Source of the DNA: Morinoia aosen
Lineage: Eukaryota; Arthropoda; Malacostraca; Amphipoda; Talitridae
DNA: 64,000 nt
Reading direction: 5' to 3'
NCBI GenBank assembly: GCA_030386875.1
Contig: CM059562.1
Span: forward strand, 20,823,360-20,887,359
Shown here: one piece after another, positions 1,032-63,493 of the stretch
Position numbering within the stretch: the first letter of the stretch is position 1
Layout of the letters: the number at the start of each line of letters is the position of its first letter
Made by a program: the position numbers and the translations under genes
The notes under the pieces: model-generated
Database searches by the model: none
The model's input: only the letters and a program-made list of their open reading frames with translations
What the model was told of the DNA's origin: nothing

Positions 1032-1388
1032 CCCCTCAGGGGGATACAGGTATTGTATCTATGGGAATTAGCGCTCCCAGGGGGGACTATGTGAGGGCCT
1101 GAGCTAAAGGTTAGGTAGGCTTCCTTTTGTTAAAATAGAATAGGTTTTTGTTTGGTCACGGACCATTTTTTTTCGGTTCACTGCTGTCCTGTTTTTCAAA
1201 ACCTACTACTTTCTTCTTCCACTTTTTATTGTTTCATGAACTTCTTTCTTAGCTTCCTGTTTCTGTGCTCCTTGTGCATAGATTCCGCGTTCCCTCAACT
1301 CCATACTAAATGGTGCCTTCCTCCTTCCTCTCTTAGAACATCTTTGTCGTGCAATAAAGGGAGGCTAAAACTTTCTTATATAATAATA
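1032..1388 (+). mobile_element. SINE-like repeat copy 1, full length
   Basis: The copy opens with CCCCTCAGGGGGATAC and TATTGTATCTATGGGAATTA, and ends in a GGGAGGCTAAAACT segment with an AT-rich tail. It is flanked by a 13-bp duplication, ATAGTCATTTTTA at 1019-1031 and ATAGTTATTTTTA at 1389-1401, with one mismatch. This defines a length of 357 bp. Confidence 0.8.
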
Positions 1389-1437
1389 ATAGTTATTTTT
1401 AATCTATCAATTTAGCATCATACTAAGTTTTGAAGGG

Positions 1438-1778
1438 GCGCTCTCGAGGGAAGATGTGAGGTCTAGAGGTGAAAGTTAAGCAAGTCTTTTATTTATTAAA
1501 GTAGAACAGGTTTTTGTATTTTTATGGACCATCCATTTTAGATTTGCTGCTGTTCTGTTTTTTAGCACTTATTATGTATTTCTTCAATTTTTATCTTGTT
1601 TGTTAGCCTTCCTTCTTAACTTCCTGTTTCTATACACAGGGGGTCTTGTGTGGGAACACACTGTGAGTTTAGATTCCCCATCCCCATAACTTTATAGTAA
1701 ATGGTGCCTTTCTCTCTTCAAAACACCTGTATTGTAATTAAGGAGGCGTAAACTAACTTATCTAATTTGATCTACGCC
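1438..1778 (+). mobile_element. SINE-like repeat copy 2
   Basis: A diverged copy of the same family as 1032-1388, recognisable from the GAGGTCTAGAGGTGAAAGTT start to the AAGGAGGCGTAAACTAACTT end. An 8-bp TTGAAGGG occurs at 1430-1437 and 1779-1786, a possible target-site duplication. Confidence 0.65.
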
Positions 1779-1961
1779 TTGAAGGGAAAGTATTTGCCTA
1801 ATATTGCGACAGTCCATCTAAGTTTGATTTACGACTATCACGGGTTAGATGCGAGTTCGGAACGAACGTCCTAGTTATTACTGCTAGCCTTTTCAGGAGG
1901 CATGGGATGTGTAGTAGGTTTAGGTTAGTTAAGTTTGTCCATCTTGAGCTATAAGAACTTG

Positions 1962-2245
1962 TGTCCCCAGAGGGGAGATTGTTAGTTACCTCAGCTATAG
2001 AAATGCCTTGAGGGATTCAATCTTTCGGGCTTTGGCTGCTTTTTTCAGTTTTCTTGCTTTCTCCGTTACTTCTTCTATGTCTTTTCTCATTCATCCTAAC
2101 TTGTGTCTATGCGGAGGGCATCCTGAGTGGAAAAACGTTTTCCACTCATTCTCCTTTTCTTTTAATCCCTACTAAATGGCGTCTCCTCTTTGCTCTCTTA
2201 AGAGCGCTTTCTTTCGGGGTTAAGGAGTCTTAAATTATAATGGTT
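1962..2245 (+). mobile_element. SINE-like repeat copy 3, diverged
   Basis: Weak but collinear similarity to the family: TCCCCAGAGGGGA near the start, then TACTAAATGGCGTCTCCTCT and GGGGTTAAGGAGTCTTAAAT at the end. This is the oldest-looking copy. Confidence 0.5.
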
Positions 2246-3219: not shown

Positions 3220-3580
3220 AGCCCCACAGGGAGTACGACTGTTGTACGAGGAGAAATTGTAACTTTGAGAGGTCCCGAGCTGAAAGTTATGCAGGCATTT
3301 TTTCGTTTTAATAGAATAAGTTGTTTTGTAACACATCTTTTTTTGGTTCACTCTTTTTTTCAGCACTTATTTACTTCTTAACTTTTTGTTTTGTTTGATA
3401 ATTTTTTTCAATTTTGCTGTTTCAATGCCCATAATATAGGGGAAATACCTTGTGCATAGATTTCCCGTCCTCCTAACTCCATGCTTTTCCATTCTCATGA
3501 TTCTTCTCTCTTTAACACCTGTGTCATTACAATTATTAGTTGGCTCAAACTTGCTCAAGATCTATAATTTATCTAATCTA
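3220..3580 (+). mobile_element. SINE-like repeat copy 4
   Basis: It starts with GCCCCACAGGGAGTACGACT, has the T-rich middle and TTTTCAGCAC, and ends in TTATCTAATCTA. Same orientation as its neighbours. Confidence 0.65.
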
Positions 3581-3695: not shown

Positions 3696-4054
3696 CCCTC
3701 AGGAATTATTGCAATTATTGTCTCTATAAGAATTAACGCTCCCAGGGGGATGTGTGAGGTTCCGAGCTCAAGGGTAGGTTCCTTTTTGTTGAAGTAGAAT
3801 AGATTTTTTATTTTTAGAGATAATTTTTTAAAATTTACTGCTATCCTGTTTTTCAACGCCTTCTACGTTTTTCCTCAACTTTTATATTGTTTCATAACCT
3901 CACTTCCCTCCCTACTATCTGTTTCTATGCGCGGGGGATTTTGGTGTTATTCCATATTCACTTGACTCCAAAATAAATAGTGCTCTCCTCGTTCCTATAT
4001 TTGATTCACCTTTGTTGTAATTTATCTTTTATAATTTACTCTTAATCTAATTAT
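3696..4054 (+). mobile_element. SINE-like repeat copy 5
   Basis: It starts with CCCTCAGGAATTATTGCAAT, continues with GAATTAACGCTCCCAGGGGG and ends in CTTAATCTAATTAT. Confidence 0.65.
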
Positions 4055-6950: not shown

Positions 6951-7080
6951 AGATCATTCGTGGGGGGTCATTTCTTTATTTGTGTGCTAAATTTATTGTC
7001 TGCGTACTACTCAAAAAATCATTGGACAAATGACGCTTTTGACCTGGGGGATCGCAAGCTTTGCGGTTCGTGAAGTTATT

Positions 7081-7613
7081 TAAAATACTCTACAATTGAC
7101 CTGAAGTGTACGGTGCAGCGGCGTTGCAATCTATCTTGCCGCTGCAAATAATTAATTTAAAATACTCTACAATTGACCTGAAGTGTACGGTGCAGCGGCT
7201 TTGCAATCTATCTTGCCGCTGCAAATAATTAATTTAAAATACTCTACAATTGACCTGAAGTGTACGGTGCAGCTGCGTTGCAATCTATCTTGCCGCTGCA
7301 AATAATTAATATAAAATACTCTACAATTGACCTGAAGTGTACGGTGCAGCTGCGTTGCAATCTATCTTGCCGCTGCAAATAATTAATTTAAAATACTCTA
7401 CAATTGACCTGAAGTGTACGGTGCAGCGGCGTTGCAATCTATCTTGCCGCTGCAAATAATTAATTTAAAATACTCTACAATTGACCTGAAGTGTACGGTG
7501 CAGCGGCGTTGCAATCTATCTTGCCGCTGCAAATAATTAATTTAAAATACTCTACAATTGACCTGAAGTGTACGGTGCAGCGGCGTTGCAATCTATCTTG
7601 CCGCTGCAAATAA
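7081..7613 (+). repeat. 77-bp tandem repeat, seven copies
   Basis: Units start at 7081, 7158, 7235, 7312, 7389, 7466 and 7543; the last is truncated. Each carries TGCAGCGGC ... GCCGCTGCA, a 9-bp stem around a 15-base loop. Units 2, 3 and 4 have single changes on the left arm of the stem. Confidence 0.95.
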
Positions 7614-8145: not shown

Positions 8146-8517
8146 ACCCCCTCAGGGGGGATACAACTATTGTATCTATGGGAATTAGCGCTCCCAGGGG
8201 GACAATATGAGGGCCCGAGCTAAAGGTTAGGTAGGCTTTCTTTTTGTTAAAATAGAATAGGTTTTTGTTTTGTTATGGACCATCTTTTTTTCGGTTCACT
8301 GCTGTCCTGTTTTTCAGCACCTACTACTTTCTTCTTCAACTTTGATCTTGTTTCATGAACTTCTTTCTCATCTTGCTGTTTCTGTGCCCTTTCTGCATAG
8401 ATTCCACGTTCCCTTAACTCCATACTAAATGGTGCCTTCTTCCTTCCTCTCTTTGGATCTCATTTGTTGAGGATAGAGAGGCTTAAACTAACTAATAATC
8501 TAATAATCCAATAATCT
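8146..8517 (+). mobile_element. SINE-like repeat copy 6, full length with target-site duplication
   Basis: One of the best-preserved copies, with a perfect GATACAA/TTGTATC hairpin near the start and a TAATC-type 3' tail. The 15-bp AATCTCAAGAGATAT occurs immediately on both sides (8131-8145 and 8518-8532). Confidence 0.85.
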
Positions 8518-8681: not shown

Positions 8682-9039
8682 TAAGGCGGGGCTCCCCTCA
8701 GGGGAAGCGACTGTTGTATATCTATGGGAATTAGCACTATCAAGAGAAAAATGTGTGAGGGCCTGAGCTGAGAGGTTGGGCTTCTTTTTGTCGAAATAAA
8801 ATGTTGTATGTTAAGGAGCATCTTTTTTTCGGTTCACTGTTGTGTTTTTCATCACCTACTACTTCCTTCTTCAACTTTTATCTCGTTTCGTAAACTTCTT
8901 TCTCAATTTACTGTTTCTATGACCCTTCTGCCTAGATCCCGCGTTCCCTTATCTCCATACTAAGCAGTGCCTTCCTCTCTTTGGAACGCTTTTTTAGCTG
9001 TTAGGGAGGCTTAAACTAACATCTATTCAAATAGTTCCA
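8682..9039 (+). mobile_element. SINE-like repeat copy 7
   Basis: It runs from GGCTCCCCTCAGGGGAAGCG to TTAGGGAGGCTTAAACTAAC. GAATATTTG at 8673-8681 and 9040-9048 is a probable target-site duplication. Confidence 0.75.
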
Positions 9040-14900: not shown

Positions 14901-17900
14901 TGTCAAGAATCGCAAAATAATTAGCGTAAAATTGAACTTATTTCACTGTAACTGGTTACCCAGTGCATACATTACAATAATACTACGTATCACCCAGACC
15001 GCGCGGCTGGCATCGCTATTTGTTCTCTAATTAGGATTTCGCTATGCTCAGGCAACTTAGAACCAAACACCAGTTTTCTCTTCATCGTTATGATTATTCA
15101 ATTTGGTCTTCTTGAGGGACATAGAATGGGCAATAGACTTAGATTAATCATGTTTGTCAGTCTTTTGCAGTGTGAACTGCATGTCGACCACAGGGGGAAT
15201 ATTCTTGGGTTACCTCAGCTTTACAAAGGCCTTCAGAATGTCTTTTTTTTGTGTAAATAATATTCGAGTGTGAGTCCACCCCATTCGTCTACCAGAATTA
15301 GCATTGAGATACGCGCTCAATAGTGTAAATATTGGCTTCAATGTTTGTTCGTGTCGTATAATGTTTTGTTAGCCTCGTCAGACAATTTCTCGTTTCTAAC
15401 GTTCAGAAGTACCTATATTGTAACTGTAATTTTTTGAGTGTCAGTTTCATGATTTGCTTCATTTGTGTTGTAAAATGGTTTGGTTAGCATTATACAAGTC
15501 ATTTTCTTGTCTTCTTCCAGTGAATTTTTTGTTCTAACATTTTTTATGTAGGAAATATTAATTGGTTGTGTGGAAGAGAATTTTGTCCGAGCCAATTACT
15601 TGGTGTTCTACTGATACGTGAGCACGAATAGAAAGTTCAAAATTTTTACAATGTCGACCTTTTAGTGTTAGCCGCAAAATTATTTTTATTTACAGACTTC
15701 ACAATTAATATTATTTATTTCCTAATATATCGTAAACGCCTAAGTTCATGTTTCAATGTAAGTTGGCAATAACAAAAGCGTTTCTCATTAATGCGTCACT
15801 GGGGTTATGTGTTTACATTTAGTTTTGTTTTAAAATGCTTCGTCTAACTTATAACTTGATGAAGGGAATACATTTCTATGGTTTTCTGGCGATCATTTGC
15901 TCTCCAATTGATAATTATTTTATGAAATCCTTGTATATTCATCTACTACGGATCTTTATGTTCAGAAATTTTAAAAACCAATGTTGTTCATCGCATTATT
16001 TTTATGACATTCGCCGTGAGATCGCCTTTGTTGTGGTCAGGGAGTTTTAAACTGATTAATATAAAAAAGAATCTATACTATAGTAAGAGCCGCGTACGTC
16101 CGCGGGCGCGTCTGTCTCTCTGTCTGTCCGAAGCCAGCCGAAAGTGTGTGATGAGCGTATCTGTGATACAAGCTCCAGTCCTATATATATTTTGACGGGC
16201 TGTGTTCACGCGGACTCATCAACTCTCGAGAGATTGTTTTTTTTTATTTCTTACGGCTTTTCTCTCATTTCTCTCTCTTTTTTATTTCAAATGAAGGGGG
16301 GTTGACTAGTAATTATAATAGCTATAATCATGAAGTTGATTCCGTTCCAAGAGTATTCCTTCGTTTCCCTTGCTCGGTGAAATGATCCGTCCAGATGCAC
16401 AGAAAGTGTATTAATGGAAATTCTGCGGATAAGGAAGTTCAACCAACATATTTATTGGGGGTTGGGGAGCGGGGAGGGAGGTTTCTGGTTCAGTTACGTC
16501 CAAAGGTGTTGAATAAATCTTAACTCGATAATTATTCTATTGAACGTCTTTCAAATTCACTTAACTGTCACTACTTTTAAAATACTCAATGGAAATAGAG
16601 GATGAACTTGTTAACTTTATATATTTCGTATGATTTTTACGTACTACGGGAGTGCGATTTGAGTACTCCTCTCACGCTGCCGGCGCATGCATACCGTCTC
16701 TCACGGGAGCGGGTCGATGCAACATCCGCGCTGAACGGGCTGATCCAATTTTCGCCGCTGATTATTTTAGCTGCCCAACGTTACGGATATTGAAGTTTTG
16801 AAATTGAACGCATCTTTTACGTAATCAATATAAGTATATTTGTGTCCTAATTCAGCTGTGACGGGTTCTTAGCTCGTCGTCAATTTAATTATTTCCTTGC
16901 ATTTCTATTTTTAATGGCCCTTGTGTGTCCAAAATGACTGCTTCCGCAGGTTCGCACAAAATCTTAGTCTGGTTGGTGCAAAAGTAATGTCCGATTTTAA
17001 GATCTACGGTAAAAATGAATAAGCCAATGAGTTGGGAAATATTTATTCATTAACATACTTTCCATTGCATTTAGTGACCTCATTTCACCTTTCAACAAGC
17101 TTATAAATGCCTCGCTTGTAAAGTTCTATTGCTTTAGAATCAAAATACAAATTAAATTATTTTGCAATCTGTTTTTTTTTTGTGGTTAACCCAAGTATAT
17201 TCAATTGGTTCTGCACTCCTCGGAACAACTGGAAATTAGGAGCAGGTTGTATTGGCCACGTCTAACTGTCTTGCGATTTGGTAACTGTAGGATTCTCGGA
17301 CTCGTTCAACTAATCGGAATCAAGTGTTCTTGGACCACCTTTCTTTGGCTCATCATTTAGAGTGTAATCACCTCTTAGAAAACGAGAAAACAATCTCCTG
17401 CAACTCGTTTCATTCACTACATCATCCTCATAAGTGTTCTGAATAGATTTTGCTACTGCATTTGCATTAAAACTTTTATGAAACTACAACATCCGCGCAA
17501 CAGTAGAACATTTCTTTTGTGATCTTTAGATGCGACAAACATAGATGCCAATATTTATGAAAAATATAAACGTAACAGAGACGATCTGAAAGAAAATCGT
17601 TTAGTTTAGTCACAGAAATGTATTAGTGTTATTACAGAATACTAATAATTAACAAATCTAATTTTAAACGTCCGTATTAAAAATCGGACATTACTTTTGC
17701 ACCAACCTGATACAACATGTTTAGTCTCGGCACGACTCTTTCGTAATTGCCTTGCTTGTTGCCGACCATTTCTGTGCGGATTTTGTAATGTTGCGTGTTT
17801 GTCGCGCTGGCTGCTCTGCAGACGGTCAATGCCCTGTGCATGTGGTGCTCTATTCTCTTGCTCGTTACGCTTTACTCTCCTGCTCGTTATGCTTTACTCT

Positions 17901-20900
17901 CCTGCTCGTTATGCTTTACTCTCCTGCTCGTTATGCTTTACTCTCCTGCTCGTTATGCTTTACTCTCCTGCTCGTTATGCTTTACTCTCCTGCTCGTTAT
18001 GCTTTACTCTCCTGCTCGTTATGCTTTACTCTCCTGCTCGTTATGCTTTACTCTCCTGCTCGTTATGCTTTACTCTCCTGCTCGTTATGCTTTACTCTCC
18101 TGCTCGTTATGCTTTACTCTCCTGCTCGTTATGCTTTACTCTCCTGCTCGTTATGCTTTACTCTCCTGCTCGTTATGCTTTACTCTCCTGCTCGTTATGC
18201 TTTACTCTCCTGCTCGTTATGCTTTACTCTCCTGCTCGTTATGCTTTACTCTCCTGCTCGTTATGCTTTACTCTCCTGCTCGTTATGCTTTATTCACTTG
18301 CTCATTTTGCTTTATTCCCTTGCTCGTTATGCTTTACTCTCCTGCTCGTTATGCTTTATTCACTTGCTCATTTTGCTTTATTCCCTTGCTCGTTATGCTT
18401 TACTCTCCTGCTCGTTATGCTTTACTCTCCTGCTCGTTATGCTTTACTCTCCTGCTCGTTATGCTTTACTCTCCTGCTCGTTATGCTTTATTCACTTGCT
18501 CATTTTGCTTTATTCCCTTGCTCGTTATGCTTTACTCTCCTGCTCGTTATGCTTTACTCTCCTGCTCGTTATGCTTTACTCTCCTGCTCGGTATGCTTTA
18601 CTCTCCTGCTCGGTATGCTTTACTCTCCTGCTCGTTATGCTTTACTCTCCTGCTCGTTATGCTTTACTCTCCTTCTCGGTATGCTTTACTCTCCTGCTCG
18701 TTATGCTTTACTCTCCTGCTCGTTATGCTTTACTCTCCTGCTCGTTATGCTCTACTCTCCTGCTCGTTATGCTCTACTCTCCTGCTCGTTATGCTTTACT
18801 CTCCTGCTCGTTATGCTTTACTCTCCTGCTCGTTATGCTTTACTCTCCTGCTCGGTATGCTTTACTCTCCTGCTCGTTATGCTTTACTCTCCTGCTCGTT
18901 ATGCGTTACTCTCCTGGCTCGTTATGCTTTACTCTCCTGCTCGTTATGCTTTACTCTCCTGCTCGTTATGCTTTACTCTCCTGCTCGTTATGCTTTACTC
19001 TCCTGCTCGTTATGCTTTACTCTCCTGCTCGTTATGCTTTACTCTCCTGCTCGTTATGCTTTACTCTCCTGCTCGTTATGCTTTACTCTCCTGCTCGTTA
19101 TGCTTTACTCTCCTGCTCGTTATGCTTTACTCTCCTGCTCGTTATGCTTTACTCTCCTGCTCGTTATGCTTTACTCTCCTGCTCGTTATGCTTTACTCTC
19201 CTGCTCGTTATGCTTTACTCTCCTGCTCGTTATGCTTTACTCTCCTGCTCGTTATGCTTTACTCTCCTGCTCGTTATGCTTTACTCTCCTGCTCGTTATG
19301 CTTTACTCTCCTGCTCGTTATGCTTTACTCTCCTGCTCGTTATGCTTTACTCTCCTGCTCGTTATGCTTTACTCTCCTGGCTCGTTATGCTTTACTCTCC
19401 TGCTCGTTATGCTTTACTCTCCTGCTCGTTATGCTTTACTCTCCTGCTCGTTATGCTTTACTCTCCTGCTCGTTATGCTTTATTCACTTGCTCATTTTGC
19501 GTTAATAATGAATAATGAATAATAATAATGAAGGCATCTACGGATGCTTTATTTCTAATCAAGCCTGATACATATCACCTTGTACATTGGATTTTCAAAT
19601 GCCTAATAACTAACGCCAGGACGCCATGACGCTTTCCCCCGGTCAAGACCGGTACCCATTTCAGACACCTGGGTAGAGTGGGGTATTGTGCTTAGAATTT
19701 TTCTCCGATATCCAACAGAGAAAATCGCCACCGCCAGCGCCGAGTTTCGAACCCGGGTCTCTGCCGCACGGCGGCAGAACCTCTAGCACATGGCTATCGC
19801 GAGCACTTTATTCCCTTGCTCGTTATGCTTTACTCTCCTGTTCGTTATGCTTTACTCTCCTGTTTGTCTTGCTTTAGTCTCCTGTTTGTCTTGCTTTAGT
19901 CTCCTGTTTGTCTTGCTTTAGTCTCCTGTTTGTCTTGCTTTAGTCTCCTGTTTGTCGTGCTTTACTCTCCTGTTTGTCGTGCTTTACTCTCCTGTTTGTC
20001 GTGCTTTACTCTCCTGTTTGTCGTGCTTTACTCTCCTGTTTGTCGTGCTTTACTCTCCTGCTTGTCGTGCTTTACTCTCCTGCTTGTCGTGCTTTACTCT
20101 CCTGCTTGTCGTGCTTAACTCTCCTGTTTGATGTGCGTTATTCTTCTGCTTGTCTTGATTCACTTCACAATACTCGTTCTGCTTCCCTTGTATTGCTTGA
20201 TTGAGTGTTGATCCTGCTTGAGTTCTGCTGTGTTTACAGTGGCTTGCTACTCCTGGGGAATCAGTCACCTATTTCCTGTGTTTATTTACTACTTTTACCT
20301 CTTTTCCTGATGTTATTATTCTGTAAGTAAGGTACCGAACGCGTACAAGTGTGCTTTACTTTAGTTGAACGAATGAATGGGAAATACCATACCAGAAGTA
20401 ACTTGAGCCTTGTAATAATGCAACTCACTTGAGAAGGACACAAATATTGTATCTATGGAAATAAGCGCTCTCAGATGAAAGATGCGAGGTCCCAAGCTGA
20501 GGATTAAGCAGGCCTTCTTTGTGTTAAAATAGAAAATTTATTAGTTTTTTTATTACCCATCGTCCTTTTTCGGTTCACTGCTGTTGTTTTTTTAGCTCCC
20601 ATTACTTTCATCTTCAACTCTTATCTGTCTCATTAACTTCCTTCAGCCTTGCTGCTTTTTGTGCGAACAGTGTGGGGCGCTCCTTCGATCGTTCCCTTAA
20701 CATCCTAAAGGGTGCCTTCTTCTTTCCTCTCTTAGGATGCCTCAGAGGGATAAAACTATTGCATCTTGGAAATTAGCGCTTCCAGGGGGGAATGTGTGGT
20801 CCCAAGCTAAAGGTTATGTAAGTCTACCTTTTGTTGAGATAGAATAGGCTTTTCCCCCTGTTACGGACAATCTTTTTTCTGTTAACTGCTTTCCTGTTTT

Positions 20901-23900
20901 TCAGCACATACTGCTTTCATTTTCAACTATTATTTTGTTTCAAAAACTCCTTTTTTAACCCTTTGCCTCCCAAAGTTCAAACGGTTTAGGAATAATTTTT
21001 CAGGATTAAATAATGTCAGTGCCCTGAAATATCAGTGAAATTGCATTAGCGTGTTTTTTTCCTGCATAAGCTTCTTTTTAAATGAAAATATGTTTCGTTA
21101 AAAATGTTTGCTAAGCGAGACGAATCTTCGACACAAAAAAAAAAATAATCGAAAAATCCAAGAAAGACATCAATGAAGTTTTTCCATAAACATATCAGCA
21201 AATCAATGTGCGGATGAAAAACTTGCTCGAGTTAAATAAAAAAGGAATTAAATGTGTTGCACAGACCATGGAGCTTAAACTGAGGAAATCAAAAGCAAAT
21301 TGTGCGTGCCAGGCTCCTGGAGTCTAATGACATAGTTACATGAATGCTATTAATTGCCATAATTTTGTCATTTAGCTCAAAACATTTCCTTAATAATTAA
21401 AAAATCTTGAAATTTTGTAAATTTCTCTAAACTGGAAGAACTAGCCATCTTGGCACTGGAATAGCCGTTAGGCGACAAAACGTTAACTTACTGTTTCTAT
21501 GCACCTAGTGCATAGATTCCGCGTTCCCTTGACTAAATATTAAATGGTGCTTTCCTCCTTCTTCTCTTTGGAATGCCTCTTTTTACGGTTAGGGAGTCTA
21601 AAACTAATATCTAATCAGTCAATCTTCCCCTCTTAGGAACGCCATTTTTGAGCTTAGGGAGGCTTAAACAATCATTTAATCAAATCTTTGATACTCTTCG
21701 AGAAATTTAGGTATCAACTACCATTTAAAATCATCCTTTGACCTTCAAACTTAAAAGCTTTGTTGGCATCGATTTTCAAGAAGGGTGAATTACTTTTCCC
21801 ACACTGTGCAAGTGTCTCTTGCACGAGTACCTTCGTTTGTTTTAGGTTCTTTTTCTTCACACTTTATTTTCTCACTTCTTGGAGATGCTTGCGCGTCCCT
21901 GTTTTTGCCATTTGTTTCAATCTGTGCTAATTGAAGTCACTAATTTGCAACAAGAAATACATGGCTAGTAATGACTGTACAGAAAACGCTTTCATGAGCT
22001 CACTAAATTTCTAACTATCACACTGATCCAGATTTAATTTAGCGCTAACCCTCGTTCAACTCCAAATTTAATTAAAAAATTCACAGTTGAAACAGAAATT
22101 AGTTCCACCATGTTGCTGCCTTTCCTGTACTGTAGCCTGTGTCTATATTGCATCATGTCCTCCACCGATCATGTTTACATGGCGATTCTACAGTAGGTAA
22201 ATAATACGTCCTGATTTTTTTGTTCGTTACTCTCTGCCTTTGTACTCTATGTAGAACACGGCTTTTGGCACCGCGTCTATTCTATTATTGTGCAGTATGC
22301 TTTTATTCCATCTTTTCTTGCTCGCATGAAAGTGGACTCAATGGCATGTATCTTTCAACGTGCAATTATAGTGCTTCATAATTAGTACTTAACAATTATA
22401 TAACTGCATGGAGCACGAGATCTTTGCTTAAAAAGACACAAATGAATCGAAATAAAAACTTGATTTAAATGAGCGAGTTAAAGGGTTCGGTAAGCCTTCC
22501 TATTATTGAAATGAAAATAGGTTCTTGTTTTGTTTTGGATCTTTTCATTTTTTGGTGAACTATTCGTTTTTTCATTAATTAATTAATATAATTATTAATT
22601 TCTTCGTCTCTTTTTATCTTGTTTCGTAAACTTTCTTCGAAACGTAGTTTCTATGCGCATGGGATCATGGGTGAAATCGCATCTTGTACATAGATTCCCG
22701 TTTCCTTAATTCCATACTAAATGGTGCATTCCCCTTTTCTCTGTTTGAATCACATTTGTTGGGGCAAGGAAGGCTTACGCTAACTTAACTAATGATCGAA
22801 TAAGCTCTCTGATTAAGGCAAAGATTTCTAACTATGCATTGGTGCGAGCCAAGTTTTTCTTGTGATCACTACTACGAGGATGCACTGAAAGAGAAAAAGG
22901 TTCACCGAATTTGAGGACTTAGTGTTTCACGGGCGACGTTTGAATTTCTGAGCGCCATTTGACGTGTCTGTCCTCGTCTGCGTGTCTTGAGGAATAAGTA
23001 TTTTAGTGGTAAAACGTTGCGACTCCTCCCAAAATCATTAGTATTGTCTTGCCAATTGTTGTTGTAGGCTTATGGGTTATTAATTTTAGAGGAGGCTGCC
23101 TTTAAATGAGCGACACTGTTATAAATTACTGTGCCCCTCAGGGGGATACAACTATTGTATCTATGGGAATTAGTGCTCCCAGGGGAACCATGTGAGGGCC
23201 CGAGCTAAAGGTTAGGTAGGCTTCCTTTTTGTTGTAATAAAATAGGTTTTTGTTTTGTTACGGACCATATTTTTTCAGTTCACTGCTGTCCTGTTTTTCA
23301 GCACCTACTACTTTCTTCTTCAACTTTTTTCTTGTTTCATGAACTTCTTTCCTAGCTTACTGTTTCTGTGCACCTTGTGCATAGATTCCGCGTTCCCTCA
23401 ACTCCATACTAAATGGTGCCTTCCTCTTTCCTCTCTTGGAACATCTTTGTCGTGGTTAAGGGAGGCTAAAACTTTCTTATATAATAATAGTATAAATTAC
23501 TGTGAGGGATCTTCGGCTCATGCTGTAACTTCTTCTCGATTTAATTTTTTTATACTAACAAAAGATTATACTGCTTTTAAAAACTTAATTTTAAATGTAA
23601 AAAGTTGACTGTTTTCGGAAAATAAATTGTGCGATTCGATGCATGTATTTCTGAGGTTCCTCTAAAAAAAGTTCTATCTGTAAGAGGGTTAACTGCTCTC
23701 AAAACACTCGACCGATAACGATGTAAGTATATTGGAAAACTTCTACTCATTTTGTTTTTATAAGACTGGCATAGCTGACGATGAGATTTTTTCAAAACTT
23801 CTCACTGGAAACAACTTAAACCTTAAGTGAACAAGTAAATATGTTTTCTCACCAGCCGGTATATTATAACTTTTAATTTCATTGTTGTTTTTCTGCAACG

Positions 23901-35200: not shown

Positions 35201-35748
35201 TTAACCACCATAGACGCAACGGGGCGATTCAACAGTGAATACCCATACAGTTTTTGAGTGTTTGTGTAGAGATTAGAATATTCCGTTTTCCTAGGTTTCG
35301 TTTAGTAGATTTGGTGATTAATTCATTTGCGTACACAGAGTCTTAGTGGTGGTAGCTGTTACCCAATCACGGGATTCCAGCAACTCACCAATGTTTTTCT
35401 GGCCGAGCGACTTACCCACCTGGAGTCACCTCTGAACAGAGTGTTCGAGTTAACAGCACTGTGCGCTCGACCATTATTTGACTTATTTGGCTAGTGTGTT
35501 TCAAGCTTCATTTAAATTTTAGGATATAGGTCTGTTTCTGTTAGGTACCTGTGTAAAGGGCCGTTGAGGGCGGTGGCAGCAGCTAGTGTTAATATATATA
35601 CGAGGAGGATTGCGCGAGTGTTGTAATTTATAGTGGGGTAGAGTGAGTAATTTATAGTGAGGTAGACCTCGTTTTTCTTTACTTCTCTGTCTCTTGAGGG
35701 GAGCCAGCGCACGGCGCCACTGTCCTATAGTTAGCTCGAGCGTTAATA
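32222..35748. other. Intergenic, no gene recognised
   Basis: Several short open frames (the longest 116 codons at 33428-33778) show no family resemblance. An ATT-repeat lies at 35178-35197. No terminal repeats were seen. Confidence 0.4.
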
Positions 35749-36467: not shown

Positions 36468-36668
36468 ACAAGAATTAACGCCCCTATGGGGAATCTGTGA
36501 GATCACGAGTTGAGAAGCAGGCCTTCTTTTGTTGAAATATAATAAACATTTTATTTTGTTAACGAACATTTTTTTATGGTTCATTGCGGTCCTCTTTTTC
36601 AGCACCTACTACTATTTTTTCAACTTCTATCTTGTTTCAACTTCTTTCTCAACTTTGTTTCTATTCTA
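36468..36668 (+). mobile_element. SINE-like repeat copy 14, 3' part missing
   Basis: It starts at TTCCACAAGAATTAACGCCC-like sequence, keeps TTTTTCAGCACCTACTACTA, and stops after TCTTTCTCAACTTTGTTTCT. It is the last plus-oriented copy. Confidence 0.65.
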
Positions 36669-36820
36669 GCTCCCAGCAGAAGTGACTAATTCACCAGTGA
36701 ATCATAAATGAGCCAGGATAGAGAGCAATAAGGAAAAAAAATGAATCGAACGTACAGCAAACAGTTCCGCATAGGCTCCTACCACGAAAGAGATAGTGAC
36801 TCGAAAGGGTACTACAAACA

Positions 36821-37140
36821 GATTAGATGTTAGTTCTAGCCTCCTGAACACAGCAACAAAGGGGTTCCAAAGAGAGGAAGGAGAAAAACACCATCTAATA
36901 AGGACTTTTAAGGGAACGCAAAATCCATGCAAAAGGGGCTCAGAAACAGTAAGTTAAAGATAAAGTTCATGAAACAAGGAGAAAGTAATAGGTGCTGAAA
37001 AACAGGACAGCAGTGAAACGAAAAAGATGGTCCGTAACAAAAAAAACTATTTCAACAAAAAGCCTACCTAGCAGCTCGGGACCTCACATACCCGCATGGG
37101 AGCGCTAGTTCTTTTGAATACAATAGTTATATTCCTGAAG
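36821..37140 (-). mobile_element. SINE-like repeat copy 15
   Basis: The tail GATTAGATGTTAG is at the low-coordinate end. The reverse complements of the middle (GTGCTGAAAAACAGGACAGC) and of the start (TACAATAGTTATATTCCTGA) follow. It is the first copy in minus orientation. Confidence 0.75.
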
Positions 37141-41650: not shown

Positions 41651-41854
41651 AAATCATTACGAAACTAGAATTTATCCTACATTGAAGAGGAATAAAAATC
41701 ATTCTAAAACGCTCGCGTCTTCACTGGCGTCAGTAGAAATTCAATTCAATTTTCAGTTATTATGAGAGAGTATTGAGCGTTCATGTGTTAGCTTTTGACG
41801 CTTTACATCTGAAAACCATCAGATTAGTATTTAAACACGAGATTTAGATTTTAG

Positions 41855-42190
41855 AATATTAGTTAGTTTAGGCCTCCCTATCCGTCATAACGGTGATCCA
41901 ACGAGATGAAGGAGGAAGACAACATTTAGTATAAAGTTAAGGGAACGCAGAATCTATGTAGAAAGTGCATAGAAACAGTTAGTTGCGAAAAAATATTATG
42001 AAATAAGATCAAAGTCGAAGAAGAAAATAATAGGTACTGAAAAACAGGACAGCAGTGAACCGAAAAAAGATGTCCTAAACACGTCAAAAATATTTCATTT
42101 CAACAATAAGAAGGCCAAACTAACTCTCAGCTCTGGCCCTCACATTTTCCCCTAGGAGTGTTAATTCCCATTGCTACCATAGTAGTATTT
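41855..42190 (-). mobile_element. SINE-like repeat copy 16
   Basis: Minus-oriented family copy, from the AGTTAGTTTAGGCCTCCCTA end to the GGAGTGTTAATTCCCATTGC start region. The extreme 5' end is diverged. Confidence 0.75.
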
Positions 42191-45396: not shown

Positions 45397-45763
45397 GATT
45401 AGATTAGATTATAAGTTAGTTTAAGCCTCCCTAACCGCTACAAAAATAGAGCGTATCGAAGAGAGGAAAGAGGAAGGCACCATTTAGTATGGAGATAAGA
45501 AAATGAGGAATCTATGCTGAAGGGGCATAGAAACAGTAAGATGAGAAAGAAGTTCATGAAATAAGATAAAAGTTGAAGAAGAAAGAGAGAGGTGCTGAAA
45601 AACAGGACAGCAGTGAACTGAAAAAAGGTGGTCCGTAACATAAAAAACTATTATTTCAACAAAAAGAAGGCCTACCAAACTCTCAGCTCGGGCCCTCACA
45701 TTTTCCCCTGGGAGCGCTAATTCCCATAGATACAATAGTTGTATCCCCCTGAGGAGGGGGGGG
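45397..45763 (-). mobile_element. SINE-like repeat copy 17, full length with target-site duplication
   Basis: A GATTAGATTAGATTA tail and a CCCCCTGAGGAGGGGG terminus bound the copy. The perfect 13-bp GGTGTAGTTCAAA lies at 45384-45396 and 45764-45776. Confidence 0.87.
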
Positions 45764-46740
45764 GGTGTAGTTCAAATGCAAAGGGGCACCGCAAGAGCGC
45801 AAAATTTGAGTGTTTTAGCGAACACAGCCAGCTATGCTGACGAAAGAAGGCGCGAGCATCTTTAAGAGAAGAAAATATGAAATGAGATTAAAGAATTCGA
45901 AGACAAAACCCTCGTGCACAAATTCAGTTGCAAGGTACGTCGATGTCCTTAATTAGAGGGGAGAGTTGTTGAGAATAAAAGGCAAGGTCTGATTGCAAAT
46001 CAGAACAAACGAGACTTGCAATAAGTGTGGCTGATATTGTGATGAGCAGCTAAGGCAACTATTACGGAGTGTCCATTTCCAAGGCACACAAACCAAGGAA
46101 GAAAAAAGCAGCACGAGTGGAGCTCAGGAATCCTACACACAATTTAGAAGCGCAGAGATGCGTTGAAGGACATAGCCTTTCACGATGCCCCATGGAAGAT
46201 TTGTACACGGAATAAATTAAATAAAAATTAAATCTAAGTTAAAACCGCTACTCACCATCGGTTCATTTAACATCCATACAGGCTTGGATTTCACTCATTT
46301 CAAATTAAAACTATATTATCACTCGTCTTAGATTAACCAGCATATATAGGTTATAACAGATTAATTTTAAATGGTAACTACTGTCGTGTTCAAGATTTGA
46401 CAACTGTTTCATCAGCCTGGTCTAACGTATGTTATTTGCAGTAACTATCATGAATTCTAATCCACGGCATAATCGTTAATAGATTCTATGGCGTCTCTAT
46501 TCACTGCACTGCTATTAAAGACTCGTTGATAGGTACTTCCTAGGTTACAAAACAAAGAAAATCCAGTAAGGAACAGTGCTCAATGCAAAGTTGCCAACTA
46601 AAACTTTTTTTTTGGGACAAAGATTGAAAAGTTGCATCATTTATCCCCCTTGTTTATGTGATGGGGGCGATAAAGTAAACAAGTGTATTATTTCCGCCCT
46701 AAATTTTCCCTGAGCTATAATAAATATTAAATATTATTTT

Positions 46741-47055
46741 ATTAATTAGTTTGAGGATCCCCAGTCACAGCAAAGGTGATTGCAAGACAGTGAAGAGAAG
46801 GACTATTTAGTATGGACTGTAAAAAACAGGGAATCTATACATAGGGTGACTTTCCACGCAGGATACCCTGCGGACAGAAACAGTGAGTCAGGAAGGAAGA
46901 AAAAGAAGAGATAGCTGAGAAAGCAGGAAAACTGAAGGAAGCAAATTGGGCACGAGAGATAGAAGTCACGAAGGCCTACCTAAAGCTGAGGCAACCTTTA
47001 AAAACCTATTCCCTGAGGGCGCCAGTTCCCATGGCACAGAATAGACAAACCTAAC
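46741..47055 (-). mobile_element. SINE-like repeat copy 18, diverged
   Basis: Collinear in minus orientation, with AAGGACTATTTAGTATGGAC and AGGGCGCCAGTTCCCATGGC. It carries an extra segment, GGTGACTTTCCACGCAGGAT, also present in related form near 62500. Confidence 0.6.
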
Positions 47056-52060: not shown

Positions 52061-55000
52061 CTGCACAGACAAATACACGAGTTGTTACAGATCCCACGTG
52101 TGATAACTGCATCATAAGCAGCAAGTATACTGTATTCCTTAATGAAATAAGTTTCATTCGTGCATGAATGTAAAATATTTCAGTACGTAAATAAGCTTAA
52201 CTCTTTGACGACGTGAGCCATCGGTGGTACACAGAGACAATTTTCATAATGCTACTGCCTAACCAGTAGTCACAGACTCAATCTTCATGAATACTTAATC
52301 GAAGCTAAATAAAGGCACGATTCAGTTTATGTTTTCTATTTCTAACATTGACCACTACAATTGACAAATTGTTGTTGAATATTGAACTTAATATTTACCA
52401 GCCGCAGTCAAAGTGTTAAAATGAACACTGCTACTTTGCATGCATCAAGAACAGTTTCGGCCTCTCAGGAACAACAAACGGGACAAAGGGGTAAACCGCG
52501 CGCGCTGTAAGTGACGAGCCCATAGCTCTGCTCTACTCTCTCTGTTCAAGTGAAGATGCTATGAAATATTCATTACCGTCTTGATTTTTTTAGGAGTGAT
52601 TTTAACTTTGCAAACTGCTTTTAACGAAATTAGTTTTGATCGAAAAAAGGAATCCTACTTCTCGGTCAATTCCGAAAGTAGAGTTATGACGGTTTTACCA
52701 AAATAACGAAGTGGCGAACGTTTACCTATGAATAACGAACGAAGTGGCGTTCCATATCACAAATATGAGTTCTTCCCTGGCAAGTTCCACAGCAAGCAGA
52801 GATCAAGGCCAGCCATAGCTACTTTGTTTAACACGTTCACCGCGTTTCCACAGTTGTTAAAGATTGGTTTGATTACGTTATACTCAACAGAATTGGGAAG
52901 TCGACTTCTCAGCTCGAATACATTTATATCCTTCCTAAAAAATATGAAAACGCAATTGCACGATAACATTTCGCCTCGAATGGTAGGAGTAATTTTTTAA
53001 AAAAGTTCGTGAAACAGTTGAAATGTCGTTCATTATTATTATTATTATATTCCTGGTTTTACCACCGCAGCCGCACAAGTGTTGATCTCAGCAGTGAGTC
53101 TCAGTTGTATTGGTTTGTTGCGTTAAATTTTTCTTGTCGTTTCCGTATCAGGGCGAGTTGGTTCTGTAGTAGTTAATCCATTGCGTGGGCAAGTTTCACT
53201 TTCAGATGTAGTTGTAGAAGTTTATTTGTCTGATAAAGTTGTACAACGGTCCCCCAAACCTCACCTGGTCGCCATCTCCAAGGTAACCCTCCAAGGTGTC
53301 CGGGGGACGTCCGCTAAACTAAATGTTCCGCGCAGCATCATGACACCGACACTCGAAAAGTATGTGGTGCACTGTCAGTGGAGCCTCACAAGCCCCGCAC
53401 GTCGGTGCCACGCCCCCCTCCATCAAATGTTCATAAGTGGCGTGCGTGTGGCCAATGCGTAGTCGGCATAGTTTCACTTCCCAAGGGCGGTTTTGCTGGT
53501 AGCTGGTAGCGAAGGGCACTATTGATTCTTTTAATGATCGCAGTTTGTTGTCCGCTTAGGCTGCCCACTCCTCTGCCCACTTTCGATCAACCTTACTCTT
53601 TATTGCTGCTTTGTAGTCAGTTGAGGGAATTGGCTTTCGTACGATGGTTTGCCGGTGGGTTGCCAGAACGGCAGCAGTATCCGCCCGCTCGTTGCCCCTC
53701 ACCCCAACGTGACTAGGTACCCAGCAGAGCGCAATCCGTTTCCCACTTTGCTGTATCGCCAGTTGGATTGCAAGGCTGAGAGGGTGTCGAGGTTTGTATT
53801 GTGCAATCCCCATAAGCGCACTACGACAGTCAGACACAATGGTCACAGATCCCGTGGAAGCAAAGCGGCAGGCTTGGACAGCAGTCAGGATAGCATACAG
53901 TTCAGCTGTGTAGCTGGATGCTACTCGTTGGATCCTTTCAGATGTTTCATTATCCCCCCGTACTACAGCAAATCCAGTACCGGATTCATTACGAGCACAG
54001 TCCGTGTAATATATTGTTGACGCGCTGTGGGATGCCAAGTGGTCCAAGAACACCGATCGAGCTGCCACTGGCCCCACCTGCAATTTCCTCACATTGTACA
54101 TCTCCTTGCACAATCTTTGAGCACCTGCTTGCCAGGGTGGGAAGACGTATGGCATTTCCACCAGCACATTGTCGAAGCGTACATCGTAGTATTCCAGCAG
54201 ATTCGTGGCTCTCACGTAAAATGGTCGGGGTGTCGTCGATTCTGGAGCGTAGGTATGAGGCGGGATATTTCTAAGTTCTTGAAGTGTGTATGTATTGGGG
54301 TTTATTTGCAGGCGGAGAGAGTAGTTCATAATTTTTAATGCACGATATTGCTCTACTGTCTTGGTCCCGGTCTCGCTGTGTAGTGAATCTATGGGCGAGC
54401 TTCGAAAGGCGCCAGCTGCTATTCTCAAAGCTGCATTTTGGATCGGTTGTATAGTCGCCAGTAGCGAAGGGCAGGCGGATCCATAGGCTTCACATCCATA
54501 ATCAATTTTAGGTTTGATTAGGGCTATGTAGAGACGTAATAACAGTTTTTTGTCGGATCCGTATGACGAGTGGGCGAGGAACTTCAGGAGGTTCAGCCCT
54601 TTAATGCATAACGTCTTCAGTTGTTGAATGTGGGGTCGCCATGTTAGGCTCTCATCTATAGTTAAGCCGAGGTATTTGTATTTCTCCACCTGGTTGATGT
54701 TTTCCCCGTGTAGGACCAGTTGCGGTGCGATTTTGGTACACCCACGTACTCGGCAGATATGCATGCTGTTTGTCTTGGTAGTAGAAAAACGAAATCCAGT
54801 TCGGTCAGTCCAGCGCTCCAGTCGGTTTATTGCGATTTGGAGTTGTCTTTCCAGCGTGTCCGTTCGGTGTCCTGCTATATATACGGCAAAATCATCCACA
54901 TATAGGGAGCTTTTACATAAGAGAGGTAAGTCTTCTGCAATATCGTTGATCGCAATCAGAAAGCAGGTGCAGCTTAGCACACTGCCCTGGAGCACTCCTT

Positions 55001-58000
55001 CTTGTAAATATTTTGTGTCGGAGAAGGAATTCCCTACACGTACCTTTATCTTGCGATCGGTGAGAAAATTATTGACAAAGTGCAGTAGGTGTCCTCCGAG
55101 TCCTCCAGTGTGGAGCTTTTTAATTATATTATATCGCCATGCAGTATCATACGCCCTAGCCAAGTCGAAGAAGATGACCAGTAAGTGCTGCTTCTGACCC
55201 ATTGCCGTACGGATAGCGGTTTCTAGGCACACGACGTTGTCGGTCGTACTACGGAATGATCTGAAGCCGCACTGCACGTTTGTAATTTTATTATTTGCTT
55301 CTAAGAAGAACATGAGCGCCGTGAGTTGATTATTCTTTCCAATAGTTTGCTCAAGCAACTTGTGAGGGCAATCGGTCTGTAATTTCCCACGCACTGCGGG
55401 TCTCTTCCTGATTTGGGGATGGGGATTATTATTGCAGTTTTCCACTGGTCCGGGAATACATCGTGTAAAAAGATATAGTTGAATAGAAGTAATAGGAGCT
55501 GGTGGAAAGATTCATGCGCTCGTTTTACCATTGCATATGTGATGGTATCAGGTCCCGGGGCTTTTTCTTTACTTTTTGATAAGGCTCCGTGTAGTTCTTC
55601 TATAAGTGGAACATTGTAAACATCGTTGCTGTTTCCAAAACGTAGCACCTGGCTCTCCATTCTTTGCTTATGGGTACAGAAGTTAGCGCTGACGTTGGAG
55701 ATGTTGCTTGTCCTGGGTATGTGGTTGGCTCTCCTCGGTGTTTAGTATTTGTATTGCGTCTCTTATCATTAAATGTCGGATTGAAAGGCTCGAGTGTGTA
55801 TTTTACTTTGCTGTTGCAGCTCCTCCCGTTCCTCGCCACTCGCAGATGTGTTCTGCAATGGTTTTGGTGCCGGGGAGGTTGACAGAGAATTGCCTTCTGC
55901 ATTTCCTGTCTGGGAGATGTCCATGAAGTCCGGGGGCGGGTTGAAGTCGTCACCATCAAGTTGGGGGTTGGGGGGGGGGGGTTAAAGTTTGAAATATCCA
56001 TGGTTAATAGGTTAAGTCTCACCTGTGCCCTGAGCCGGCACCAGCTTTGGTCGGCCGCCAACAAGGGGAACCCTTCTGTCAGGCTCACGTAGTCCCGACG
56101 GGCACACTCACTAAGCACAGGCATAGCTCCTGGCACGAGCAGATGCAGCAGGTTGTAGCGCTTGACTAACCAGCGAGACGTTTCCGCGCCTCACTGGCGT
56201 TTAAACCGCCCCCCGCCTTTCCACCCGGCCATCGGCTAACCCTTGCCGCGCACGACTATCAAGCCGGCAGGTCGGGTCTAGGTCCCGGCCGGCCTTACAA
56301 TCAAATCCAAGGAGAGGTCAATGTGTGTCCAGGAGAGTATCCAGTTGTCAGCTCGGTTGTCAGTGTTGCCATCCCAGTTGGTCTGGATCTCGGCCCAAGC
56401 CTGTCTGTCATGGTTGAACCTGGGACAGCATAGCCTTGGGCTTCATTGAACACACAAGCCCCCTCCCCGTGACAAGGACAGGATGGCGTGAGGGGGAAAT
56501 GTCGTTCATTTATACCGGTTCGTGAATGGGCGATTTACCAGTTGGCACACTTGCAGCCCAATACGCAGGAAACGTATTAAAAAACTTGAAGGCGTCCGCA
56601 GCCACATGTTCAATAACTATGCGAATATAGAATAAAATATCAAGCATCTTATTTCTAACACGTTGACTACGCTTGCGGGGAAAACAGACTTTATACTTGA
56701 ATACATTTCCAACCTTTTTAAGAAAGGTGAAAAATATAACTGTATGATAATATTTTACCAAATAAGCAAAATCCACTTCAAAAAGACTTGTGAAATAAAT
56801 GAAATGTTATTCATTTATACCGGTACGTGAATGAGCAATTTACCAACCGATACACGTATGTCTTAATACGTAGTCAAAGTTTTAACTTCTGAAATTGAAC
56901 ACGTCGAATATCAGATTACAATATAATTTTCTTATGAGTCTGAATCGCCCAAATAAAACGATTTTATTCATTTGAAAACCGAAAACTTACATGGAATACG
57001 AAAGTACTTGAAAGGACATCCACTTCAAGAACGACTCTATACGCCGTTCTCTCCATACAACGATATTGTACGCCGCCTAAACACAACACAGCAAGAAAAA
57101 GGAGGTCTGATACCCACTGGAAGTATTCAGCGTAGGCGGTCACGTTGCGGCTTAGATATGTCATGTAGTCGGCGAGGTCTTCCACACTCTCGTAGTCAAG
57201 CACGTTGATATAGGAGTGGGGAGGCACCACATTTTCGTAGGGGCCCAACCCGTACACCACAGGCACGACGTTGTACCTGAAAGAACATTCCCGGTCAATA
57301 AGCTTGCAGCGGCTATCATTGATACTATTTTATTTTGCTCACCGTTGTATTTCTCAGATAACAATCTGAGTAGAGCCTCGAAGTGTGAGCCATCGTAATC
57401 ATGAGCAACGTGACAAGAAAAACCGTGAAAATAATGTTATACTTTAACAAACACTGTCCGTGCAAGGACGATAGCTCATGCACAAATTATAATTTTTGCA
57501 TGAGAACTTGCAATAATCTTGCTGAGCACATAGAACTTACAGGAAGAAGAGCTCCGGTAAACAACTAACGTTCACGAGTTCAGCAAATTCATTACTTACC
57601 CTTGCTCGAACAGTCCAAATTATCCTATACAAGACCCACCGCTAACTACTCAAGTAACAAAACTATGAGAAAACTTTGTCTTTCTTTACAGCATTCCAAG
57701 TTTCAAGTTTTCAATTCATTTTGGATACATACTCTTGCAAGCTTAAAAACCACGAGGTAAAAATGCTCAAGAGGCACAAATCCTCCAGACGCAAATTCAT
57801 AAGAGGGACAAATAATAGGAGAGACAAATTCCTAAGAGACACAAATCTTCAAGAGGGACAAATCCTAAAGAAACAAAAATTTCCATGAGGTAAAAATTTC
57901 CGAAAACGCACAAATCCTCTAAAGGCACAAACCCCCCTTGAGGCATAAATCATTAAAATGCAAAAATCACTATAAGTAGAATTTTACCAAAAACTACACA

Positions 58001-62301: not shown

Positions 62302-62390
62302 CTGCCCAAATCATAGTTCATACTCTCACGTTTGTGAAATGATTGATGAATTGCTTCCGATGTTCACGTTTGGGAGATGATTGATAAATT

Positions 62391-62782
62391 GTTTTAGTTT
62401 CAGCCTCTCTTACCACAACATAGATGATGTTCAAAGAGAGGAAGGATGAAAGCACCATTTTGTATGGAGTCAAGGCAACGCAGAATCTATAAACAAAGTG
62501 TGTTCCCACACAGGATCCACTACGCACAGAAACAGTGAGATAAGAAGGAAGGTTAGGAAACAAGATAAAAGTTGAAGAAGACAGTCACAGGTGCTGAAAA
62601 ACAGGACACCAGAGAACCAAAAAAAAGATTGCCTCTAACAAAACAAAATGAAAAATTTAATCCAACAAACAGAAAGCCTATCTAACTCTAGGCTCAGGAC
62701 CTCTCATTTTCCCTTGAAAATGATACAATAGTTGCATAGTTACAATGTAAAGATACAATAGTTGTATCTCTCTGAGAGATAC
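62391..62782 (-). mobile_element. SINE-like repeat copy 19
   Basis: A long-subtype copy with an extra ATTTTGTATGGAGTCAAGGC to CACACAGGATCCACTACGCA segment. It ends in a locally duplicated GATACAATAGTTG motif. It lies just upstream of fucosyltransferase exon A. Confidence 0.72.
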
Positions 62783-63159
62783 AGTTGAGAAAAAATGTTT
62801 CTGTTATCCAATTTGGAAATTTCTTGTAATACAAAAACGGTTTGTAGAAAATGCGGGATCCGAAGATTAAACATGAGGAAATATGGAACCGCTTAGCAAT
62901 AAAACAACTATACACAGAATCAGTCGTATGGTTACAAAGAATCGCTCTTTGACACTCATGCTGTCAATTTATTCCTAGAAAATTAACGAACAATTCTTAA
63001 CACCTTCTTATGAATAAAAAGAGGAACGCCCTCGAATTGAATCCTAACAAGCAAAGACTCGAGCGTAAAGCAGCAACAACACTGGTGCGACCATCCATGG
63101 TTTAACGCGGTGTCGGCCCATGCGAACCATTTTAAACTCGACATCTTTATAAACGAGGA

Positions 63160-63493
63160 TTAGATTAGATTAGTCGTTAGTTTTAGCCTCCCTACCTGCA
63201 GCAACAAATGCGATCCAAAGAGAGGAAAGCACCATTTAGTATGGAGTTAAGGAAAAGCGAAAACTACGCAGAAAGGGCATAGAAACAGTAGGTTGGGAAA
63301 GAAGATTATTAAACAAGATCAAAATTGAAGAAGGAAGTAGAAAGTGCTGAAAATCAGGACAGCAGAGAACAGAAAAAAGATGGTCCTTAACATAACAAAA
63401 ACATTTTATTTCAACAAAAAGAAGGTCTATCTAACTCTCAGCTAGGGCCCTCATATTGTCCCCCTGGGAGCGCTAATTCCCATAGATACAATA
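63160..63493 (-). mobile_element. SINE-like repeat copy 20 with target-site duplication
   Basis: The tail TTAGATTAGATTAG is at the left, and the copy ends at GATACAATA, so the CCCCTCAGGGGG terminus is missing. TTATAAACGAGGA is duplicated at 63147-63159 and 63494-63506. Confidence 0.85.

What the first reader, a model, noticed from the sequence alone, without database searches (positions are those of the whole stretch)
1032..63493. A high-copy SINE-like family (about 355 bp) with precise target-site duplications but no evident pol III promoter
About 20 copies in 64 kb share the same ends: CCCCTCAGGGGGATACAACT at the start, then GGGAGGCTTAAACTAA and a TAATC- or TAATA-type tail. Target-site duplications of 9-15 bp are seen directly at 1019/1389, 8131/8518, 8673/9040, 23120/23491, 25725/26091, 45384/45764 and 63147/63494, and a 14-bp pair with one mismatch at 20724/21625. 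Some copies are 5'-truncated. These are marks of LINE-mediated retroposition. Yet I see no tRNA, 7SL or 5S-like A/B-box pair, and the consensus contains several T4-T7 runs that would stop pol III. The 5' end is instead a chain of small hairpins (CCCCTcAGGGG, GATACAA-TTGTATC). It may be an unusual SINE class or a retroposed structured RNA.
Basis: partly seen in the sequence, partly recalled or inferred. Interest (0 to 1): 0.75.

Follow-up and report, generated by a model that had tools for sequence, protein, structure and literature searches.

The report
LINE-driven SINE-like repeat, non-standard head
This is a very abundant, still young family of short copy-and-paste repeats that carries the tail end of the genome's own larger jumping genes, but unlike ordinary repeats of this type it shows no recognisable RNA polymerase III start signal.

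Summary
The window carries 23 BLAST hits that merge by eye to about 20 copies (7 hits full length, ~9% of the bases). Genome-wide there are about 36,000 near-exact 5' ends and 46,000 near-exact 3' ends. Of 52 distinct full-length copies, 39 have an exact TSD of at least 7 nt, usually 12-14, against 5.6% for re-paired flanks. Nested insertions give empty sites.

It is a LINE-mobilised, non-autonomous retroposon. New here: the last ~45 nt before the tail resemble the 3' ends of (TAA)n-tailed LINE-type elements of the same genome (three of six comparisons significant; best, SINE-B versus LINE-X, 0 of 20,000 random segments). The partner is probably an I-type LINE.

The rest, including the CCCCTCAGGGG 5' end, shows no tRNA, 5S, 7SL or snRNA ancestry. 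A/B-box resemblance is at chance level, and T5-T6 runs lie inside. The 5' hairpins exist in the consensus, but neither folding energy nor covariation supports selection on them. Host organism and transcription mechanism remain unknown.

The parts
1032..1388 (+). full-length copy, subfamily A
   Evidence: TSD 1019/1389 with 1 mismatch
1438..1761 (+). old 5'-incomplete copy
3266..3430 (+). fragment
3712..4017 (+). old copy
8148..8504 (+). full-length copy, type B; TSD 8131/8518
8694..9020 (+). full-length older copy; TSD 8673/9040
16021..16061 (+). 3'-end fragment
20436..20733 (+). outer SINE copy, first part, split by a younger SINE
20740..21607 (+). inner SINE copy (20740-20953 and 21487-21607) with a ~530-bp insert that does not match the family
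21624..21686 (+). outer SINE copy, second part
22474..22801 (+). old copy
23134..23489 (+). best copy of subfamily A in the window (99.2% to consensus), 14-bp exact TSD 23120/23491
25739..26083 (+). full-length type B copy; TSD 25725/26091
28111..28503 (+). full-length copy with insertions
36472..36662 (+). fragment
36820..37135 (-). near full-length copy
41851..42188 (-). near full-length copy
45402..45754 (-). full-length type B copy; TSD 45384/45764
46733..46841 (-). 3' fragment
62394..62776 (-). copy in two aligned parts (62394-62713, 62751-62776); 5' hairpin reads TCTCTCAGAGAG
63163..63493 (-). 5'-truncated copy (starts at consensus 20) with exact 13-bp TSD 63147/63494
53034..56495 (-). 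internally deleted copy of LINE1 (RT and RNase H by Pfam; ends GGTGGTAAAACCAGGAATA(TAA)n), member of the candidate partner group; starts CCCCTCA after a TSD read by eye
35178..35609 (-). LINE-X: element with LINE-type 3' end GGTGGTTAAATAG(TAA)n, TSD AACACTCGCGCAA read by eye, no coding evidence; closest match to the SINE-B 3' end

Best explanation
A high-copy, non-autonomous retroposon of ~340 bp plus tail. Shown: it ends in a LINE-type 3' segment (~45 nt, with a GGnGG(C)TWAAA motif about 20 nt before the tail) and a (TAA)n, (TAATC)n or (TAAAC)n tail, and insertions make TSDs mostly of 12-14 bp. Inferred: the protein of an I-type LINE (EN-RT-RNaseH, (TAA)n tail) recognises this 3' end in trans and copies the RNA by target-primed reverse transcription. 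Inferred: the RNA is not a pol III product; it is made by pol II or cut from a longer transcript, so that its 5' end is the fixed CCCCTCAGGGG. Subfamily A (15 of 18 sampled copies under 3% from consensus) is the recent wave; B is a set of older subfamilies.
For: TSDs of at least 7 nt in 39 of 52 distinct full copies versus 5.6% in re-paired flanks; 28 of 39 are 12-14 nt; 27 of 39 have no extra base before CCCC. Empty sites: in L068 a type-B copy splits an A copy and duplicates consensus 221-233; in L071 consensus 116-128 is duplicated the same way; also window 20436-21686. Copies lacking the 5' part but keeping the tail end are frequent, e.g. window 63163-63493 with its TSD. 3' homology: SB versus LINE-X score 32 (0/5000 shuffles, 0/20,000 random masked 60-mers); SB versus LINE2 29 (0/5000, 14/20,000); SA versus LINE2 27 (2/5000, 41/20,000). 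LINE1 is young: 25 listed copies keep a 1235-aa frame, two fetched 5' parts are 99.8% identical. A/B boxes at chance level, six (A) or seven (B) T4-T6 runs; no tRNA or Rfam match. Divergence.
Against: Three of the six SINE-LINE comparisons are not significant: SA-LINE1 (462/5000 shuffles), SB-LINE1 (461/5000), SA-LINE-X (357/5000). LINE-X itself is called LINE-type only from its 3' end. No LINE with a TAATC tail behind GGTGGTWAAAC was found: 0 exact matches genome-wide, so the (TAATC) tail of type B has no demonstrated LINE counterpart. The head has no known origin. No expression data. The A/B-box scan is a simple consensus scan without a positive control.
Confidence: 0.8

Rival explanations
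1. A standard SINE whose tRNA, 5S or 7SL head has decayed or diverged beyond recognition and is still transcribed by pol III.
For: A B-box-like GGTTCACTGCT lies at consensus 144-154 (7 of 9 positions), in a relatively conserved stretch, 141-160 (8-9% mismatch).
Against: On the + strand that match is reached by 47 (A) and 39 (B) of 100 Markov shuffles; the best A+B pair by 8 and 17 of 100. It lies 144 nt in, behind T-runs at 93, 114, 120 and 137. ARAGORN and Rfam find nothing.
Confidence: 0.1
2. A short internally deleted LINE (SIDE-like): the 5' UTR start and 3' end of one I-type LINE joined, with LINE promoter or 5' processing signal retained.
For: LINE1 of the same genome starts (C)CCCCTCACGCC, sharing CCCCTCA with the SINE; the 3' end is LINE-type; an internally deleted LINE1 copy lies in the window.
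Against: Beyond 7 nt the 5' ends do not match by eye; LINE2 starts quite differently. At E<=1e-5 the hits of the consensus in LINE-bearing loci that one search lists lie in flanks, not inside LINE1 or LINE2 (full-length hits were not listed there).
Confidence: 0.25
3. Retroposed structured RNA with a functional 5' hairpin chain.
For: Three hairpins tile nt 1-47 of the consensus; nt 1-30 are among the least diverged parts (5.7-8.9% mismatch versus 8-21% elsewhere); one copy (62760) carries two compensated pairs. In 100 listed copies with T at position 3, A stands at positions 8, 9, 10, 11 in 7, 13, 14, 6: more at the two possible partners, 9 and 10.
Against: z -1.46 for nt 1-47 (16 of 200 shuffles as good) and -0.07 for nt 1-90. 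Pairs kept 91.8% versus 91.6% in shuffles; one double change versus 0.7; covariation score 0.083 versus 0.075, reached by 71 of 500 (the 62760 copy was not in that set). The position-3 test has no measured baseline for double changes, and some of its copies sit 34 or 40 bp apart in tandem. Local alignment favours well-matching ends, so the low divergence may be partly artefact.
Confidence: 0.12

Closest known systems
SINEs with LINE-derived 3' tails (SINE1/2/3/U classes; passages of PMC7245038, and PMC8010984)
   Same: Short, high-copy, TSDs, simple-repeat tail, 3' end shared with a LINE of the same genome; [quoted passage not shown]
   Different: No 7SL, tRNA, 5S or snRNA head and no pol III boxes found; T-runs inside.
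Trypanosomatid LINE / SINE-like / SIDER elements sharing the 77-nt Pr77 (starts of the abstracts of PMC8190864, PMC4748587, PMC4035085 seen in the listing)
   Same: Short elements that share their 5' end with a LINE; LINE1 and the SINE here share a CCCCTCA start.
   Different: Only 7 nt are shared here; no ribozyme or promoter shown for the SINE.
R2 SIDEs, internally deleted R2 elements (start of the abstract of PMC3414825 seen in the listing)
   Same: Short element moved by the parent LINE using the 3' end.
   Different: SIDEs keep parental 5' sequence with the ribozyme (recalled); here the body was not found in LINE1 or LINE2.
SVA/LAVA composites and Entamoeba SINEs (recalled; PMC2996970 only seen in a listing)
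   Same: LINE-mobilised elements without a classic pol III head (recalled).
   Different: Unrelated sequence and partner LINEs (recalled; not compared).

Membership tests
LINE-mobilised non-autonomous retroposon | Variable TSDs, simple-repeat 3' tail, 5' truncation, no coding capacity | tested here: met
   that no frame of 150 aa or more lies in a copy was read off
LINE-mobilised non-autonomous retroposon | 3' end homologous to a LINE of the same genome | tested here: met
   significant in 3 of 6 comparisons (SB-LINE-X, SB-LINE2, SA-LINE2), not in SA-LINE1, SB-LINE1, SA-LINE-X
SINE in the strict sense | Internal pol III promoter in a 5' head from a small RNA gene | tested here: not met
   consensus scan only, no positive control run
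SINE in the strict sense | Actual pol III transcription | not testable with these tools
   no expression data
SINE2 / SINE3 / SINE1 / SINEU | tRNA / 5S / 7SL / snRNA-derived head | tested here: not met
   ARAGORN none in the window; Rfam none at gathering in the window; one A copy up to E 5 gives only CRISPR-DR37 and NEAT1_2 below threshold; one B copy up to E 10 gives only n00280 and SmY (E 8, at the 3' end) below threshold
Internally deleted LINE (SIDE) | 5' and 3' parts both from one LINE | tested here: inconclusive
   3' part LINE-type; 5' shares 7 nt with LINE1; only two LINE 5' ends were available
Fragment of a longer LINE or a DNA transposon | Belongs to a longer conserved unit, or has terminal inverted repeats and fixed TSD length | tested here: not met
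   TSD abuts CCCC and tail, lengths 7-16; no common upstream extension among the hits listed except one host repeat
HDV-like ribozyme at the 5' end (as in R2, L1Tc) | Double pseudoknot P1-P4 with catalytic C | tested here: inconclusive
   No Rfam match at threshold for the SINE or LINE1; pairings considered by eye only

The most novel reading that the evidence does not exclude
A SINE-like class without any pol III head, whose 5' end is fixed by a C-rich signal (CCCCTCA) shared with its I-type LINE, so that LINE and SINE use the same non-pol III way (pol II start or RNA processing) to make an RNA with this exact end, parallel to the shared Pr77 end of trypanosomatid LINEs and their short partners.
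Probability: 0.18. Interest if true: 0.65.

Novelty: new variant of a known kind. Interest (0 to 1): 0.42.

Why it matters
SINEs are normally defined by a pol III head. A family with tens of thousands of copies, a young subfamily, a LINE-type 3' end and no recognisable such head would be a clean case for asking what else can launch a SINE, and for testing what an I-type LINE recognises at a 3' end. The short shared 3' motif (GGnGG(C)TWAAA plus tail) is directly testable.

Tried and rejected
Rejected: tRNA, 5S, 7SL or snRNA head; fragment of a longer LINE or DNA transposon. Not supported: selection on the 5' hairpins (the pattern test is inconclusive); HDV-like ribozyme in the SINE (pairings tried by eye only, and not kept between subfamilies). 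Led nowhere: search for a TAATC-tailed LINE with the GGTGGTWAAAC motif (0 matches); exact SINE patterns in viral and prokaryote contigs and a BLAST of one copy against phages (none); text search for four sequence words of the family (0 papers). Earlier runs of the 3'-end comparison: one search included the tails, which inflates scores; one search stopped with an error after SA-LINE1 (1143/5000, not significant) and SA-LINE2 (22/5000; 132/20,000 unmasked segments); one search is the masked, tail-free run. Dfam and Repbase are not available here, so whether the family is already named there is unknown. The host organism was not identified.

Rows dropped: copies with identical upstream flank were counted once (18 fetched loci of one host repeat carry the same insertion) and copies not spanning consensus 2 to 328 were left out. 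In some searches and 80 copies fetched because of their 5' end were left out. One search used 23 of the 45 5' ends, chosen by me because they reach or nearly reach the 5' terminus; some that do were left out because of indels.

Full report
OBSERVATION. The window (1.99-Gb genome, 29 contigs, C7:20823360-20887359) carries 23 BLAST hits to the family's two consensuses; merging three split pairs by eye leaves about 20 copies, 7 hits being full length, 5,979 bases in all. Genome-wide the first 28 nt occur 36,074 times with up to 2 mismatches (reversed control 0) and the 3' 16-mer 46,381 times with up to 1 mismatch (control 22).

MOBILITY. Of 52 distinct full-length copies with flanks, 39 have an exact TSD of at least 7 nt; 28 of these are 12-14 nt; re-paired flanks give 5.6%. 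In 27 of the 39 no base stands between TSD and the first C. Nested copies show the target before insertion: in L068 a B copy interrupts an A copy and duplicates consensus 221-233; in L071 consensus 116-128 is duplicated; window 20436-21686 is similar. 5'-truncated copies keep the tail, for example 63163-63493 (-), which starts at consensus 20 and has a 13-bp TSD. These are marks of target-primed retroposition.

SUBFAMILIES. Copies fall into A (tail ..TATATAATAATAATAA) and B (tails TAATC, TAAAC; a mixture). In an alignment of 45 distinct full copies, 18 are A and 27 B; A copies are 0.9-6.5% from their consensus (15 of 18 below 3%), B copies 5.3-20.9%; the two consensuses differ at 28 of 342 positions.

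PARTNER LINE. The window holds an internally deleted LINE1 copy (RVT_1 and RNase_H by Pfam) with about 2.9 kb missing relative to a 6.3-kb copy. Of the matches listed for its protein, 25 at ~95% identity keep a 1235-aa frame, and a second family, LINE2, is ~49% identical. LINE1 ends GGTGGTAAAACCAGGAATA(TAA)n, LINE2 GGTGGTTAAACAATTACAA(TAA)n; a third element, LINE-X at 35178-35609 (-), ends GGTGGTTAAATAG(TAA)n and has a TSD seen by eye. LINE-X is called LINE-type because its 3' end aligns with that of LINE1 (score 38; 0/5000 shuffles, 0/20,000 segments); LINE1-LINE2 score 41 (0, 0); LINE2-LINE-X 24 (117, 109). The last 60 nt of SINE-B before the tail align with LINE-X (32; 0 of 5000 shuffles, 0 of 20,000 random masked window 60-mers) and LINE2 (29; 0 and 14); SINE-A with LINE2 (27; 2 and 41). 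Not significant: SA-LINE1 (17; 462, 3793), SB-LINE1 (18; 461, 2865), SA-LINE-X (19; 357, 1623). LINE-X was noticed because of its tail, so it was not a blind pick. The shared part is about 45 nt and includes GGnGG(C)TWAAA. I conclude that the 3' end is LINE-type and that the partner is probably an EN-RT-RNaseH LINE with (TAA)n tail. 'EN' and 'I clade' are my placement from the LINE2 frame, domain order and tail, recalled, without a tree or a Pfam scan of the N-terminal half.

HEAD. ARAGORN and Rfam find no tRNA, 5S, 7SL or snRNA at threshold. On the + strand the best A+B box pair is reached by 8 of 100 (A) and 17 of 100 (B) Markov shuffles, the best B box by 47 and 39 of 100; T-runs of 4-6 lie at 93, 114, 120, 137, 161 and 192, and in B also at 313. 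The scan had no positive control. An RNA that starts with CCCC is an unusual start for pol II or pol III (recalled), which is one reason to consider RNA processing. LINE1 starts (C)CCCCTCACGCC, so CCCCTCA is shared; LINE2 starts otherwise.

STRUCTURE. The 5' hairpins are in the consensus, but z-scores are -1.03 (one A copy, 342 nt), -1.46 (nt 1-47) and -0.07 (nt 1-90), and 23 diverged 5' ends show no significant covariation: 91.8% of cells paired versus 91.6% in shuffles, one double change versus 0.7, score 0.083 versus 0.075 (71 of 500 shuffles reach it). One copy with two compensated pairs exists (62760) and was not in that set. Of 537 copies with T at position 3, the 100 listed have A at positions 8, 9, 10, 11 in 7, 13, 14, 6; 313 copies have A10 alone; some lie in tandem pairs. 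This leans slightly towards pairing but has no baseline, so it is inconclusive.

VERDICT. A real, abundant LINE-mobilised element with a young subfamily, a head of unknown origin and no recognisable pol III promoter. It works like a SINE; it fails the pol III head criterion of a SINE in the strict sense, as far as sequence can tell. Four sequence words of the family are in no paper of the library searched; whether it is in Dfam or Repbase could not be tested. Confidence was lowered from 0.82 to 0.80 on recheck because three of six 3'-end comparisons are not significant.

Noticed in passing
L082:1300-1435, L081:1265-1400, window ~56360-56495 (-): 5' end of LINE1 can form a 7-bp P1 (CCCCCTC/GAGGGGG), a 7-bp P2 (GCCATCC/GGATGGC) and a P4-like stem: a candidate HDV-like ribozyme drawn by eye. 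The centroid and the 41-nt fold show P1, the 136-nt minimum-energy fold does not, z is -0.04; no Rfam match at threshold.
   Followed up: partly
window 53034-56495 (-): LINE1 copy with both ends but ~2.9 kb deleted inside, an internally deleted element.
   Followed up: partly
window 35178-35609 (-): A ~430-bp element with (TAA)n tail and LINE-type 3' end, start TCCTCCTCG; could be a 5'-truncated LINE or a second non-autonomous family.
   Followed up: partly
window 17692-19515; 41204-41728; 6996-7690: Tandem arrays of 22, 15 and 77 bp; the 22- and 15-bp arrays are open in several frames.
   Followed up: no
SINE consensus ~154-168: CTGTCCTGTTTTTCAG looks like a 3' splice acceptor in sense orientation, read by eye.
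   Followed up: no
L010-L016, L018, L019, L021-L029: 18 fetched loci on different contigs share the same flanks and the same subfamily A insertion, so another repeat seems to have amplified with the SINE inside.
   Followed up: no
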